Source: [Mycobacterium] vasticus (GTDB lineage Bacteria > Actinomycetota > Actinomycetes > Mycobacteriales > Mycobacteriaceae). From it: a stretch of DNA of 64,000 bases. Position 1 is the first letter of the stretch; each line of letters begins with the position of its first letter. Below the pieces are notes generated by a model. It did no database searches and was not told where the DNA came from. It saw only the letters and a program-made list of their open reading frames with translations. The translations under genes and the position numbers were made by a program. The DNA lies in assembly GCF_020181595.1 (NCBI RefSeq), contig NZ_CP084028.1, positions 1,523,647 through 1,587,646 on the forward strand, read 5' to 3'. This document shows positions 58,082-64,000 of this stretch, one piece after another.

Positions 58082-58477
58082 ATGCCCACCGTCCTGATCG
58101 AGGTACGCCGCCACTACACAACGGCTGAGGAGATCGCGATCATCGACGCCGTCCACGGTGCGATGGTCACGGCCTTCCAGATCCCGGCCACGGACAAGAA
58201 CGTCCGGCTGGTCGCCCACGAGCCACACCGGTTCGCGGTGCCGGCGCACCTGGCCCAACCGGAGTACCGCACCCTGGTCTCGATCGCCTGCTTCACCGGC
58301 AGGTCCCTGGACGCGAAACGCGCACTGTATGCCGGGATCGTCGAACGCCTTGAGACACTGGGGATCCCGCGTGACCACGTGATGATCACCCTGCACGAGG
58401 CGGACCGCGACAACTGGGGGATCCGGGGTGGGCAGGCCGCCTCCGACGTCGAGCTGGGCTTCAACATTCAGGTGTGA
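58082..58477 (+). CDS. Tautomerase-superfamily protein
   Basis: This 131-residue protein begins MPTVLIEV; Pro2 would become the catalytic N-terminus, the hallmark of 4-oxalocrotonate tautomerase-fold proteins. It has the tandem beta-alpha-beta layout of the longer tautomerases (MSAD/MIF-like) rather than the 62-residue 4-OT. It lies 9 nt after the amine oxidase, suggesting one unit that may process a carbonyl product. The 3' end overlaps rbsK by 10 nt. The substrate is not known. Confidence 0.85.
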   Translation: MPTVLIEVRRHYTTAEEIAIIDAVHGAMVTAFQIPATDKNVRLVAHEPHRFAVPAHLAQPEYRTLVSIACFTGRSLDAKRALYAGIVERLETLGIPRDHVMITLHEADRDNWGIRGGQAASDVELGFNIQV

Positions 58478-59322
58478 TCGCGCAGCATCCGGGTGATCGC
58501 CGCTGAATCCGGCGCGCAGTCCCCGGCTCCCCGAACCTGGGTCGCCAGCGCCCCGGCGGCGCAGGCGCAGCGCAGCGCGTGCGCGATGCCACGTGGCCAC
58601 TCGGCGGCCAGCACACCGGCGAACACGTCACCCGCACCGGAGGTGTCGACGGCATCGACCACCGGTGCCGGTACGTGCACGGTGCCGTCCGCGCCGGTGT
58701 AGCGCGCCCCGTTCGCGCCCAGCGTGACCACCCGGTGCGGCACCGGATGATCGAACCGCGCGGATTCGGTCTCATTGACCACCGCGACGTCCACCAGGTC
58801 GACCAGCCTCGCCAGCTCGGTCTCCTCACCGCCTGCCGGGGAGACGTTGACGATCACCGTCGCCCCGGCGGCGCGTGCGATCCGGGCGGCCGCGGCGGCC
58901 GTCGCGATCGGAATCTCCAACTGCAACAGCAGCACCTGGGCGCCGGCGATCGCGTCGCGTCCGGCGTTCACCTCGACCGCACTGTTGGCTCCCGGCACCA
59001 CCACGATGGTGTTCTGCCCAGCCGTGTCCACGGTGATGATGGCAGCGCCACTGGGCCCGGGCACAGTCACCAACCCCGCGGTGCCGACGCCGTTGTCCGC
59101 CAGGTGCCGACGCAGTAGCGCACCGGCGTCGTCGTCACCCACCGCACCCACGAAGCAGACCTGCGCACCGGCCCGGGCGGCCGCGACGGCCTGATTGCCG
59201 CCCTTGCCACCGGGAACGGTGGCCGGTGTCGAACCCAGCACCGTCTCGCCCGGGGCGGGCAGTGCGGCGACGGTGAACACCGCGTCCAGATTCACGCTGC
59301 CCACCACACATACCCGCGTCAT
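58468..59322 (-). CDS. rbsK: Ribokinase (PfkB family)
   Basis: This 284-residue sugar kinase begins MTRVCVVGSVNLD and has the PfkB signature GGKGGNQAVAAARAG (about 40-54) and the ATP/anion-hole motif DTSGAGDVFAG with the catalytic Asp near residue 235. It phosphorylates ribose or a similar sugar. No ribose transporter is beside it. I chose ATG at 59322; the in-frame codons farther upstream cross into the cyclase leader. It is divergent from the cyclase gene across about 90 nt. Confidence 0.9.
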   Translation of the reverse strand: MTRVCVVGSVNLDAVFTVAALPAPGETVLGSTPATVPGGKGGNQAVAAARAGAQVCFVGAVGDDDAGALLRRHLADNGVGTAGLVTVPGPSGAAIITVDTAGQNTIVVVPGANSAVEVNAGRDAIAGAQVLLLQLEIPIATAAAAARIARAAGATVIVNVSPAGGEETELARLVDLVDVAVVNETESARFDHPVPHRVVTLGANGARYTGADGTVHVPAPVVDAVDTSGAGDVFAGVLAAEWPRGIAHALRCACAAGALATQVRGAGDCAPDSAAITRMLRDHT

Positions 59323-59411
59323 GGAATCCAGCTTCGCATTCACGACCGCGGAATGTCCTGCATCGCTTAGTGTGAGGAACCGCCTGGAAGACCGGGGAAG
59401 GGAGCCGCCCA

Positions 59412-61547
59412 GTGGATGCGGCACCGTTGACAGTGGCCCCGGCCGGCGAAGAGCGTCTGTACCGGCGGCTCGCAGCGCGCCTGAGTATCCAGACCAAGCT
59501 GATGATGATCCTGCTGCTGACCGCTATCGCCTCGGTCGCCATCGTTGGATTCGTCGAGTTCCAGTATGGCGCAAAGGAATTACAGTTGGCGGCGACCAAC
59601 AAACTGGTGCAGGCCCGCGAGTTGCAGCGCCGGGCGATCACCGGGCTGTTCGCCGATATGACCAACTCCCTGACCGTGTTCAGCGGAGGAGCGGTCGCCT
59701 CGGGCGCGCTCACCGCGTTCACCGCCGGATTCGACGAACTCGCCCGGGTTGCAGTCACGCCAGAACAGCAGCGGGCGATAGCGGACTACTACCGGGACAA
59801 CTTCACCAAGGCCCTGGGCGAGCGAGCGGGCGATCAACCCGACGTTGCGGCGTTTCTGCCCACTTCGAACGCGCAGCGCTATCTGCAGGCCCACTACACC
59901 GTCGCCGACTCGCAGCGGTCCGACGGCGACTCCAGCGCCTGGGCGGCGGCAAACGCCCAGTTCAACGATATTTTCGGAGACATCGTCCACCTCAACGGGT
60001 ACCAGGATGGCTTGTTGTTGGACACCCGAGGCAACGTGGTCTATTCGGTCAACAAGGGTGTGGACCTGGGCACCAACGTGCTTACCGGTCCCTACCGTGA
60101 ATCCGGCCTTCAGGGCGCCTACCGCAAGACGCTGGCGGCCAATGCGGTCAACTTCGTCTGGATCACCGATTTCGCGCCCTACCAACCCAACCTGGACACG
60201 CCGACGGCATGGCTGGTGTCGCCGGTCGGTACCAAGGGTGTGGTCGAGGGTGTGATGGCCCTGGCCCTGCCCAGCGCAAAAATCACCGAGATCATGACCG
60301 TCGGCCGCGACTGGGATGCCGCCGGGCTGGGCCGCACAGCCGAGAGCTACCTGGCCGGTCCGGACGGCCTGATGCGGTCCGATTCGCGGCTGTTCCTCGA
60401 AGATCCAGACCGATACCGTCGGGAGGCGATGGCGGCCGGGACATCTGAGTCGACAGTGGACCGCGCGCTGCGATGGGGGACCACCACCCTGGTGCAACCC
60501 GTCGCCGGTCCGGGACTGCGGGCCGCCCAACGTGGTCAGTCCGGAACGCTCAACACCGGACACGACTATCTGGGCAAACGTGAGCTGACCGCGTACGCGC
60601 CGCTGACCGTGCCCAACTCGGACCTGCAGTGGTCGATCCTGTCGACCCGGGAGTACGCCGACGCCTACTCCGGCGTCACCTCCTTCCTGCGCAGGGTGGT
60701 GCTGGCCACGACCGGGGTCATCTTCGCGATCTGCATGCTGGCGATGCTGCTCGCCCGGCTGTTCCTGCAGCCGATCCGGCGGTTGCAGGCTGCTGCCCAG
60801 CGGATCAGTGCCGGGGACTACAGCGCCGTGGTCCCGGCCTGCACGGCTGACGAGATCGGCGATCTGACCAGGGCTTTCAACGACATGAGCCGTAGCCTGC
60901 GCACCAAGGAGGAGATGCTCGACCAGCAGCGCAGACAGAACGACGAACTGATGTTGTCGCTGATGCCGGAGTCGTTGGTTCGGCGCTACCGCGGGGGCGA
61001 ACAGGCCATCGCCGATGAGCATCACAACGTCAGCGTCATCTACGCCGAACTGCAGGGGATCGAGCAGGTTTCGGCCGAGGTCACTGCGAGCGAACTGGTG
61101 ACGCTGGTCGACGACCTGGTCAGGCAGTTCGACGCGGCGGCCGAAGCCGTTGGCGTTGAGCGGATCCGGACTATGCACAACGGCTACCTCGCCGGCTGCG
61201 GGCTGACCACGCCGCGGCTCGACGGCGTGCACCGTGTCGTCGAATTCGCGTGCGAGATGCAGCGCATCGTCGAACGGTTCGCCATCAAATCCGGCCACCG
61301 GTTGAGCCTGTGGGCAGCGATTAACACCGGCGAGGTCGTCAGCGGCCTGGTGGGACGCTCCGGCGTCACCTACGACCTGTGGGGTCCCGCTGTCAACCGC
61401 GCCTATCAGCTACGCAGGGACACAACGGAATCCGGTATCTATGTCACCGCAGCGGTGCGTGACATGCTCGACGAGGACCAGAAATTCGTCGCGGTAGGCA
61501 CCGGAGACGCCCAGGATCAGATCTGGAGATTGTCGGAGACGCCGTGA
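59412..61547 (+). CDS. Membrane receptor with degenerate class III adenylate cyclase domain (Rv2435c type)
   Basis: This 711-residue protein has a TM helix (about 29-48), a large extracytoplasmic sensor region (about 50-425, CACHE-like by layout), a second TM helix (about 428-452), a HAMP linker (453-505) and a C-terminal class III cyclase homology domain (about 535-690). By eye the first metal Asp is Glu546 (YAELQG), the second is Asn590 (MHNGY), the substrate Lys position is Arg584, and the transition-state Arg is Gln666. Asp655 (YDLWG) and Asn662 are kept. It may therefore be a weak or non-catalytic cyclase. The start is GTG and it overlaps the channel gene by 4 nt. Confidence 0.9.
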   Translation: MDAAPLTVAPAGEERLYRRLAARLSIQTKLMMILLLTAIASVAIVGFVEFQYGAKELQLAATNKLVQARELQRRAITGLFADMTNSLTVFSGGAVASGALTAFTAGFDELARVAVTPEQQRAIADYYRDNFTKALGERAGDQPDVAAFLPTSNAQRYLQAHYTVADSQRSDGDSSAWAAANAQFNDIFGDIVHLNGYQDGLLLDTRGNVVYSVNKGVDLGTNVLTGPYRESGLQGAYRKTLAANAVNFVWITDFAPYQPNLDTPTAWLVSPVGTKGVVEGVMALALPSAKITEIMTVGRDWDAAGLGRTAESYLAGPDGLMRSDSRLFLEDPDRYRREAMAAGTSESTVDRALRWGTTTLVQPVAGPGLRAAQRGQSGTLNTGHDYLGKRELTAYAPLTVPNSDLQWSILSTREYADAYSGVTSFLRRVVLATTGVIFAICMLAMLLARLFLQPIRRLQAAAQRISAGDYSAVVPACTADEIGDLTRAFNDMSRSLRTKEEMLDQQRRQNDELMLSLMPESLVRRYRGGEQAIADEHHNVSVIYAELQGIEQVSAEVTASELVTLVDDLVRQFDAAAEAVGVERIRTMHNGYLAGCGLTTPRLDGVHRVVEFACEMQRIVERFAIKSGHRLSLWAAINTGEVVSGLVGRSGVTYDLWGPAVNRAYQLRRDTTESGIYVTAAVRDMLDEDQKFVAVGTGDAQDQIWRLSETP

Positions 61548-62929
61548 GCATCCTCGGGCCGTGGCTGTACTGGGCGATCGGGATCGCAATCGGGCTCCCG
61601 GCCGGCCTGGTCCTGCTCACCGAAGGCCATGTGGCCCTGGCCCGCCGAGGCAGTTCCCTGGCGCGGCCGGTGGCCCTGCTACGGAACTATCTGTTGCCGC
61701 TGGGCGCATTGTCGGTGTTGCTGGCGAAGGTGGCCGGTGTGTCGGGACAGGATCCGGCGCTGCGGGTCATCTACACGGCGTTCGGCTTCGTGCTGTTGGT
61801 GTTGGCACTGTCGGTGCTCGACGTCACCTTTTTCCAGAGCGCCCCGAAGGATTCCTGGCGGGGCCGGATGCCGACGATCTTCGTCGACGTCGCCCGCTTC
61901 CTGTTGATCGGTGTCGGTCTGGCGCTGACGCTGTCGCACGTCTGGGGAGCCCGGATCGGTGGCCTGTTCACCGCGCTCGGTGTGACGTCGGTGGTCATCG
62001 GGCTGATGCTGCAGAACTCGGTCGGCCAGATCGTTTCGGGCCTGTTCATGCTGTTCGAGCAGCCGTTCCGGATCGGCGACTGGCTGTCGACTCCCACCGC
62101 GCGCGGCCGGGTCGTGGAGGTGAACTGGCGCGCGGCGCACATCCACACCACCGATGGCCTGCAGATCATGCCGAACTCGGTGCTGGCCGGCACCTCGTTC
62201 ACCAACATCACCCGATCCGGCGGGGTACACCAGGTGTCGATCACGACCACGTTCGGCGTCGCCGACCCGCCGGACCAGGTGTGCGCGCTGTTGTCGCGAG
62301 TGGCGATCGCACTGCCGATGCGAACCACCGGCGCCGCACCGGCTTCGGCGACCCTGGGCAGCGGTCAGTACCGCACCACGATCGCGGTCGACTCGCCGAG
62401 CGACGACGGCCCGGCGCAGGCCACCTTCCTACGGTGGCTCTGGTACGCCGCCCGGCGGGAGGGACTGCACCTCGACAACGCCGCCGACGACTTCAGCACG
62501 CCGGAGCGGGCGGCCGAGGCGCTGCGGACAGTTGTGGCACCTGCCCTGCGGCTGACCGACGCCGACGAACAGGCCCTGGCACCCCATGCCAGGGTGGTCC
62601 GCTACGGCGCGGACGAACCCCTGCAACAGGCCGGTCTGGTGCCGGCCGGGATCACCTTCCTGACCCATGGCAGGGTCCGGCTCACCAGCGAGGATCCCGA
62701 CTTGCCGGGCGTCACGCTGGGCGACGGCGCGTTCCTTGGGATCACCTCTTTGACACGGCAGTCCAGCCAGTTCGACGCCCACGCCCTGGAGGAGGTGACT
62801 GCGGTGGTCATCGACCGCGAACACATCGAGGACCTGGTGATGGCCAAGCCGCTGCTGCTGCAGGAGCTGGGCCGGATCATCGACCAGCGGCGCAGTGTGG
62901 TGTCTGCAGACCGGGGCCGTTTTACCTGA
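61544..62929 (+). CDS. MscS-family channel with C-terminal cyclic-nucleotide-binding-like domain (Rv2434c type)
   Basis: This 461-residue protein has four to five N-terminal helices, the MscS pore and beta region (about 135-215: GLMLQNSVGQIVSGLFMLFEQPF, DGLQIMPNSVL) and a C-terminal domain (about 345-450) that folds like a CRP-type cNMP-binding barrel (VVRYGADEPL, FLTHGRVRL). Such fusions are known as bCNG channels. In the phosphate-binding cassette, the usual GE and R residues appear as GI and Gln (GAFLGITSLTRQSSQF). The GTG start is inside the cyclase stop, so the channel and receptor are made together. Confidence 0.9.
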   Translation: MSILGPWLYWAIGIAIGLPAGLVLLTEGHVALARRGSSLARPVALLRNYLLPLGALSVLLAKVAGVSGQDPALRVIYTAFGFVLLVLALSVLDVTFFQSAPKDSWRGRMPTIFVDVARFLLIGVGLALTLSHVWGARIGGLFTALGVTSVVIGLMLQNSVGQIVSGLFMLFEQPFRIGDWLSTPTARGRVVEVNWRAAHIHTTDGLQIMPNSVLAGTSFTNITRSGGVHQVSITTTFGVADPPDQVCALLSRVAIALPMRTTGAAPASATLGSGQYRTTIAVDSPSDDGPAQATFLRWLWYAARREGLHLDNAADDFSTPERAAEALRTVVAPALRLTDADEQALAPHARVVRYGADEPLQQAGLVPAGITFLTHGRVRLTSEDPDLPGVTLGDGAFLGITSLTRQSSQFDAHALEEVTAVVIDREHIEDLVMAKPLLLQELGRIIDQRRSVVSADRGRFT

Positions 62930-62956: not shown

Positions 62957-64000
62957 ATGAGCGTCCCCGTGCTTCCCGACCTGCGCCAAGAGGTCCACGA
63001 TGCCGCCCGCCGAGCCCGGGTCGCCTCCCGTGCGCTGACGTCGCTGTCCACCGCGGCCAAGAACAACGTGCTCAACGCCGCCGCCGACGCGTTGCTGACT
63101 CACTCCGACACCATTGTGGCGGCCAACGCCGAGGATCTCGCGGTTGCGCGGGCGGCCGGCACCCCTGAGGCGATGCTGGACCGGCTGGCCCTGAACCCCG
63201 AGCGGGTCGAGGGGATCGCCGCCGGGCTGCGCCAGGTGGCCGGGCTGCCCGACCCGGTCGGCGAGGTGCTGCGCGGCTACACCCTGCCCAACGGCTTGTT
63301 GCTGCGCCAGCAGCGCGTCCCGCTGGGCGTGGTGGGCATGGTCTACGAGGGCCGGCCCAACGTCACCGTCGACGCGTTCGGTCTGACGCTGAAATCGGGC
63401 AACGCGGCGTTGCTGCGCGGCAGCTCGTCCGCCGCACACTCCAACCAGGCCTTGGTCGAGGTGTTGCGCGGTGCCCTGGAGGCCGAGGACCTGCCCGCTG
63501 ACGCCGTACAGCTGCTGTCGTCCGTCGACCGCGCCACCGTCACGCACCTGATCCAGGCCCGCGGCCTTGTCGACGTGGTGATTCCGCGTGGCGGGGCCGG
63601 GCTGATCGACGCGGTGGTGCGCGACGCGCTGGTGCCGACCATCGAGACCGGGGTGGGCAACTGCCACGTCTACATCCATGAGGCCGCCGATCTTTCGGTC
63701 GCCGAAGAAGTGCTGCTGAACTCCAAGACTCGCCGGCCCAGCGTCTGCAATGCCGCCGAGACCCTGCTGATCGACGCCACGATCGCCGAGACGGCGTTGC
63801 CGCGGCTGGTCGACGCGTTGACCGCAGCCGGGGTCACCGTGCACGGCGACGCCGACACCGCCGCCCCCGAGGACGACCTGCGCCGCGAATACCTGGCGAT
63901 GGACATCGCCTTGTCCGTGGTCGACGGGCTCGAGGACGCGATCGAGCACATCAACGAATACGGCACCGGCCACACCGAGGCCATCGTCACCACCAATATG
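62957..64000 (+). CDS. proA: Gamma-glutamyl phosphate reductase (partial, runs off the window)
   Basis: The first 348 codons of ProA are present (family length about 415). Visible are [23 protein letters not shown], the nucleotide region [10 protein letters not shown], and the catalytic Cys264 in [13 protein letters not shown]. ProA reduces gamma-glutamyl phosphate with NADPH to give glutamate semialdehyde in proline synthesis, acting after ProB (48671). The ATG is 27 nt after the channel stop. The frame is open to the end of the window with no defect. Confidence 0.95.

What the first reader, a model, noticed from the sequence alone, without database searches (positions are those of the whole stretch)
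61544..62929. MscS channel with a degenerate cNMP-binding domain overlapping a pseudo-cyclase: possible new sensor-channel system
The channel domain is complete, but the cNMP cassette lacks the usual Glu and Arg. Together with the coupled pseudo-cyclase this suggests that the receptor controls the channel by direct contact or another ligand. Both losses in both partners argue for a repurposed signalling module conserved at the Rv2435c-Rv2434c locus.
Basis: partly seen in the sequence, partly recalled or inferred. Interest (0 to 1): 0.7.

Follow-up and report, generated by a model that had tools for sequence, protein, structure and literature searches.

The report
Conserved pseudo-cyclase receptor and channel pair
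A bacterial gene pair, a membrane receptor whose enzyme part looks dead and an ion channel whose cAMP-binding part looks blind, is kept together across distant actinobacteria, which suggests that the receptor talks to the channel without the usual cAMP messenger.

Summary
ORF 61544-62929 is an MscS-superfamily channel with a C-terminal cNMP-type domain; it overlaps by 4 nt a dCache-HAMP-cyclase-like receptor (59412-61547). The cassette Glu is Ile400 and the Arg is Ser408; the receptor keeps 2 of 6 class III catalytic residues. The genome is a Mycolicibacter-type Mycobacterium.

The state is old. 0 of 124 channels read have the cassette Glu. None of 133 cyclase domains has all six residues and 1 of 133 has both metal Asp, against 12 of 13 other cyclases of this genome. 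All 86 named pairs and all 42 channels read in wider loci have a receptor beside the channel. In 346 actinobacterial genomes the channel was found in 12, the full-length receptor in 13: these 12 and one whose channel is cut at a contig end. Tandem copies co-segregate as pairs. In 11 loci of a distant clade the channel sits between two such receptors. Both odd domains look purifying-selected.

Best reading: a dedicated receptor-operated channel, controlled by contact with the dead cyclase dimer rather than by cAMP. Pairing and site loss are shown; contact and gating are inferred. A non-cAMP ligand is the main rival.

The parts
59412..61547 (+). dCache-HAMP-cyclase-like receptor, 711 aa (Rv2435c-type); stop codon included
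59481..59573 (+). first TM segment of the receptor (residues about 24-54)
   Evidence: hydropathy
59574..60674 (+). extracytoplasmic dCache sensor (residues about 55-421)
60675..60902 (+). second TM segment and HAMP domain (residues about 422-497)
   Evidence: PF00672 57.0 bits at residues 446-497
61014..61490 (+). degenerate cyclase-homology domain, Pfam match at residues 535-693; catalytic positions E546, R586, N590, D655, N662, Q666
61544..62929 (+). MscS-type channel with C-terminal cNMP-type domain, 461 aa (Rv2434c-type); stop codon included
61544..61547 (+). 4-nt overlap GTGA of channel start and receptor stop
62015..62215 (+). MscS beta domain (Pfam match residues 158-224)
   Evidence: PF00924 65.9 bits
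62597..62842 (+). cNMP-type domain (Pfam match residues 352-433)
62720..62785 (+). degenerate phosphate-binding cassette, residues 393-414 (I400 for Glu, S408 for Arg; conserved T404-R405-Q406)

Best explanation
The two genes make a dedicated receptor-operated channel. A ligand or envelope cue is sensed by the extracytoplasmic dCache domain; the signal passes through the TM helices and the HAMP coiled coil into a cyclase-homology dimer that cannot make cAMP; that dimer contacts the cNMP-type domains below the MscS-type pore and changes how easily the channel opens. Shown here: translationally coupled gene order, inheritance and duplication as a unit, loss of the catalytic and cassette residues in every relative read, and continued purifying selection on both odd domains. 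Inferred: dimerisation, the contact, the direction of the effect and the stimulus.
For: Pairing: 86 of 86 named pairs have the receptor directly upstream, 45 overlapping by 4 nt and 36 by 1 nt; 30 of 30 loci and 42 of 42 channels in wider loci have one too. Co-occurrence: channel in 12 and full-length receptor in 13 of the same 346 genomes, 12 shared, the 13th with its channel cut at a contig end; in 24 rechecked genomes 5 have both and 19 neither, among them four Mycobacterium that lack both. Co-duplication: 10 of 10 tandem copies fall in the same orthologue group in both trees. Residues. Control: 12 of 13 other cyclases of the genome keep both metal Asp. Selection: dN/dS 0.02-0.25 for the cyclase-homology domain in 10 of 10 comparisons and 0.06-0.23 for the cNMP domain in 9 of 10. 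Two receptors flank one channel in 11 loci. Folds intact.
Against: Nothing here shows contact or gating; shared operon and co-inheritance also fit a diffusible ligand. One cassette residue, R405, is almost fixed outside the triad clade, as a kept ligand site would be. One receptor (L141) keeps both metal Asp, and the first metal Asp is kept in 59 of 84 named pairs. One cNMP comparison gave dN/dS 0.69, at dS 0.05. In L197 the receptor is in two frames beside an intact channel. The ABC-ATPase-linked cNMP domain of the same genome also lacks the Glu (GQ, Arg kept), so loss of the Glu alone is not a strong sign. The tree correlation has no control gene.
Confidence: 0.5

Rival explanations
1. The pair still uses a small molecule, but not a classical cyclic mononucleotide: the cNMP-type domain binds another anion or metabolite through the conserved LTR[QE] cassette, and/or the cyclase-homology domain binds a nucleotide without turning it over and acts as a sensor.
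For: R405 is kept in 82 of 82 named channels and 26 of 30 others outside the triad clade, followed by Q or E in most. cNMP-fold domains that bind other ligands are described (PMC2246266, passages). The Ade-Asp is kept in 84 of 84 named cyclase domains.
Against: R405 is kept in only 4 of 12 channels of the triad clade, which are also paired. The conserved cassette could as well be a docking surface. No ligand was found or testable.
Confidence: 0.27
2. Conventional cAMP signalling: the receptor, alone or with another cyclase as a heterodimer, makes cAMP, and the channel binds it despite the changed residues.
For: Domain families and their order are those of a cAMP pathway; one member keeps both metal Asp (L141); print counts Rv2435c among adenylate cyclases (PMC4822843, PMC3961136, passages).
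Against: The second metal Asp and the Lys are absent in 84 of 84 named domains and the Arg in 80 of 84, so residues of both half-sites are missing and a heterodimer partner would not complete a site. No channel of 124 has the cassette Glu.
Confidence: 0.07
3. Two neighbours with unlinked jobs: a receptor that signals elsewhere and an osmotic release channel, held together only by operon position near proA.
For: The pair lies beside proA in 59 of 80 named loci; MscS-type channels commonly act alone (recalled).
Against: Pairs are found at other places in other lineages, neither partner was found without the other in 346 genomes apart from the contig-end case, and tandem pairs co-segregate.
Confidence: 0.1
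4. Neutral decay: both domains are remnants on the way out.
For: Catalytic and cassette residues are gone.
Against: dN/dS well under 1 in nearly all comparisons; the same replacements recur over genera, orders and classes; folds predicted intact.
Confidence: 0.03

Closest known systems
bCNG channels / 'bacterial CNBs attached to mechanosensitive ion channels' (family 14 of Kannan 2007, PMC2246266; Caldwell 2010 and Malcolm 2012 seen only as titles in a reference list)
   Same: MscS-type pore followed by a C-terminal cNMP fold.
   Different: Their printed cassette consensus is GEIALLTGGPRTATVRA; here the Glu is gone in 124 of 124, and a receptor gene is attached.
YnaI and MscS of E. coli
   Same: YnaI is the best solved sequence match (residues 80-240, E 9.8e-14); five hydrophobic segments here.
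   Different: No cNMP-type domain or receptor partner in those (recalled).
Class III adenylyl cyclases with HAMP, such as the Rv1318c-1320c and Rv1625c types (names recalled)
   Same: Cyclase-homology fold.
   Different: Other cyclases of this genome keep both metal Asp in 12 of 13; the window's keeps neither.
cAMP-gated channels MloK1, SthK, HCN
   Same: Channel with a cytosolic C-terminal cNMP fold; best structural matches of that part.
   Different: Voltage-gated-type pore and working cassettes (recalled).
KCNH channels with a cNMP fold that binds no cyclic nucleotide (recalled)
   Same: A cNMP fold kept in a channel without its classical ligand.
   Different: Other pore family, no partner receptor of this kind.
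Rhodopsin-guanylyl cyclase with a CNG channel in chytrid fungi (recalled)
   Same: A sensor-cyclase and a cyclic-nucleotide-type channel serving one pathway.
   Different: There the cyclase is active and the link is cGMP.

Membership tests
MscS superfamily | MscS beta domain and pore helix | tested here: met
   PF00924 65.9 bits against cut-off 20.2; Foldseek top matches are MscS-type channels.
MscS superfamily | opens under membrane tension | not testable with these tools
   needs electrophysiology
bCNG (MscS-cNMP) channels | C-terminal cNMP fold | tested here: met
bCNG (MscS-cNMP) channels | cassette Glu and Arg of the printed consensus | tested here: not met
   I400 and S408 in the window; Glu 0 of 124 channels. 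Arg column has R in 4 of 12 of the triad clade only, where the alignment is least sure.
bCNG (MscS-cNMP) channels | gated by cAMP or cGMP | not testable with these tools
   needs binding and current measurements
Class III nucleotide cyclases | cyclase-homology fold | tested here: met
Class III nucleotide cyclases | two metal Asp, Lys, Asn, Arg | tested here: not met
   Window E, R, N, (D), N, Q; 2 of 6 positions canonical, counting the Ade-Asp.
Class III nucleotide cyclases | makes cAMP or cGMP | not testable with these tools
   needs an assay
dCache receptors | double Cache sensor | tested here: met
dCache receptors | a defined ligand-binding motif | not tested
   no ligand class assigned

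The most novel reading that the evidence does not exclude
A bacterial receptor-operated MscS channel: an ancient actinobacterial signalling unit in which an enzyme-dead cyclase dimer, worked by a dCache sensor, physically controls a channel through an emptied cNMP fold, with a two-receptor version in a distant clade.
Probability: 0.35. Interest if true: 0.85.

Novelty: new variant of a known kind. Interest (0 to 1): 0.62.

Why it matters
Rv2435c-type proteins are counted in print as adenylate cyclases of the mycobacterial cAMP network (PMC4822843, PMC3961136; passages); the residues say that this family should not be. If the receptor controls the channel by contact, bacteria have a route from an outside ligand to an ion channel without a second messenger, built from the two halves of a cAMP pathway, and it could be tested with two genes in a laboratory strain. 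It also offers a natural series of emptied cyclase and cNMP folds that are still under selection.

Tried and rejected
Heterodimer rescue of catalysis: named mycobacterial domains lack residues of both half-sites; in the triad clade the first metal Asp is absent in 21 of 21 receptors counted (10 upstream, 11 downstream). Rejected for those. Decay: rejected on dN/dS. A mycobacterial peculiarity: rejected. An intact sister pair: none seen, but only Actinomycetota genomes were searched; other phyla were not searched for canonical MscS-cNMP channels beside cyclases. Residue covariation between the partners was not attempted: too few diverse pairs. Co-complex prediction was not possible with the tool given.

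Papers. (MscS, cNMP domain, cyclase, dCache combined with group names) gave 0 papers; the listings showed no description of this pair in titles and abstract starts. PMC2447327, the 2004 cyclase survey, could be read only as abstract and section list; the index counts Rv2434c 3 times, Rv2435c 10 times and 'inactive cyclase domain' once in its full text. PMC3961136 cites that survey for an inactive Rv1359 (passage), so the phrase may concern Rv1359, but I cannot exclude that the survey already notes the pair or the lost residues.

Rows dropped: 4 of 86 named channels with a stop inside the extracted frame (L006, L011, L014, L067; not inspected) from the 124; 2 of 86 cyclase frames of 600 aa or less (L062, L082) from the 84; of the wider loci only cyclase frames over 600 aa were counted (49). 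Named and unnamed sets may share species, and close relatives are not independent. One search kept the best 80 of 133 relatives. In some searches only 4 and 3 first-look candidates per genome were scored, so absences there are less sure than, where all candidates were scored. The ten dN/dS comparisons reuse some loci.

Full report

The lost residues. A profile of 20 family cNMP domains aligned to solved ones puts the channel's I400 at the cassette Glu and S408 at the Arg. Among 82 named channels including the window the Glu position is L 48, V 23, I 10, Q 1 and the Arg position N 67, S 14, V 1. Among 30 channels of the wider loci outside the triad clade the Glu position is Q 17, M 4 and others, and the Arg position V 14, A 5, T 5, S 4, M 1, Q 1. 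Among 12 of the triad clade the Glu position is L 5, M 2, P 2 and others, and the Arg column has R in 4 of 12, where the alignment is least sure. There is no Glu in 124. A motif LTR[QE] is nearly fixed instead, except in the triad clade. In the cyclase-homology domain the window has E, R, N, D, N, Q at the first metal Asp, Lys, second metal Asp, Ade-Asp, Asn and Arg. In 84 named domains the Lys is Arg in 84, the second metal Asp is Asn in 83, and both metal Asp occur in 0; in 49 domains of the wider loci both occur in 1 (L141); none of the 133 has all six. Control: of the 13 other PF00211 cyclases of this genome 12 have both metal Asp and 8 have the whole set, with Asp or Thr at the Ade position. 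A second control is less clean: of the three other PF00027 proteins of this genome the CRP-like and the acetyltransferase-linked ones keep Glu and Arg, but the ABC-ATPase-linked one reads GQ with the Arg kept. In print, cNMP domains attached to mechanosensitive channels have the consensus GEIALLTGGPRTATVRA (PMC2246266, passages including a row of its Table 1).

One unit. All 86 named pairs including the window (80 loci plus the window; 5 loci hold two pairs) have the receptor directly upstream; 45 overlap by 4 nt and 36 by 1 nt. So do 30 of 30 loci (several are read again in the next set) and 42 of 42 channels in the wider loci. The channel was found in 28 of 301 genomes of the family, 25 of the 29 same-genus genomes listed. 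The four same-genus genomes without it lack the receptor as well; over 24 genomes rechecked 5 have both and 19 neither. In the same sample of 346 actinobacterial genomes the channel is found in 12 and a full-length receptor in 13; the 13th, G621, has its channel at a contig edge beside the receptor. The other hits cover the cyclase end, or in G473 the Cache-HAMP part, and are other proteins. Trees of 120 pairs correlate at 0.99 and of 82 named pairs at 0.92, without a control gene. More telling, in the 5 tandem loci the four nearest rows of each of the 10 copies belong to the same orthologue group in both trees, so pairs were duplicated and kept as pairs.

Range and a two-receptor form. Pairs occur in other genera of the family (L110-L112), another family of the order (L141), other families of the class (L142-L144, L172, L186-L192) and outside the class (L145-L147, L174-L185). 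The channel of L146 is 100% identical to a protein named for Ilumatobacter fluminis, by recall an acidimicrobiian. In 11 of these loci the order is receptor-channel-receptor, with 4-nt overlaps at both joints in 7 of 11 (in L177 and L182 the upstream receptor is split or cut). Of 10 upstream receptors counted 9 keep the Lys and 8 the second metal Asp, none the first; of 11 downstream ones none keeps the Lys, the Ade-Asp or the first metal Asp. L183-L185, from two genomes of the same family, are plain pairs. In mycobacteria the pair sits mostly between divergent rbsK (51 of 80 named loci) and proA (59 of 80).

Selection. In ten comparisons of close relatives dN/dS was 0.02-0.25 for the cyclase-homology domain, and 0.06-0.23 for the cNMP-type domain in nine; the tenth gave 0.69 at dS 0.05. 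The odd domains are therefore kept for something.

How it most likely works. Sensor, HAMP and cyclase-type dimer are the parts of a classical transmembrane receptor; the cNMP-type domain sits where MloK1, SthK, HCN and bCNG channels carry their cAMP switch. With the chemistry of synthesis and binding gone in both, but fold, order and pairing kept, contact between the two cytosolic domains is the simplest remaining link, and the triads fit a receptor of two unlike subunits. That step is inference. A non-cAMP ligand is the chief rival.

Known and new. Print treats Rv2435c as an adenylate cyclase with a double Cache domain (PMC4822843, passage) of the mammalian-type group (PMC3961136, passages), and Rv2434c as a membrane protein perhaps in cAMP signalling (PMC11205783, passages); expression of Rv2435c is reported (PMC3938503, passage); PMC9995111 has neither name in its text (term count). 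I found no report of the conserved pair, its joint loss of sites, its range or the triads in the searches listed under Tried and rejected, with the caveat on PMC2447327 given there.

Noticed in passing
L145, L146, L147, L174-L180, L182: Receptor-channel-receptor triads: one channel gene between two unlike pseudo-cyclase receptors.
   Followed up: partly
L021, L022, L023, L028, L031: Tandem second copies of the whole receptor-channel pair; copies keep their partners in both trees.
   Followed up: yes
L197:3176-5335 (-): The receptor is in two frames beside an intact channel: a sequencing error or a broken receptor; not inspected.
   Followed up: no
L004 (G000:C1:462805-463056): An ABC-type ATPase frame ends in a cNMP domain whose cassette reads GQ instead of GE with the Arg kept.
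   Followed up: no
L234 (G473:C87:1683-2594): A protein matching only the Cache-HAMP part of the receptor profile (positions 177-509, frame 697 aa); its output domain was not read.
   Followed up: no
window 62957-64000 and 58468-59424: The pair sits between proA (same strand, 27 nt on) and a divergent rbsK-like gene; proA follows in 59 of 80 named loci. Proline synthesis beside an MscS-type channel hints at osmotic physiology.
   Followed up: partly
L141:3317-5545 (-): The one receptor with both metal Asp (D, R, D, D, S, R): possibly still a nucleotide binder.
   Followed up: no
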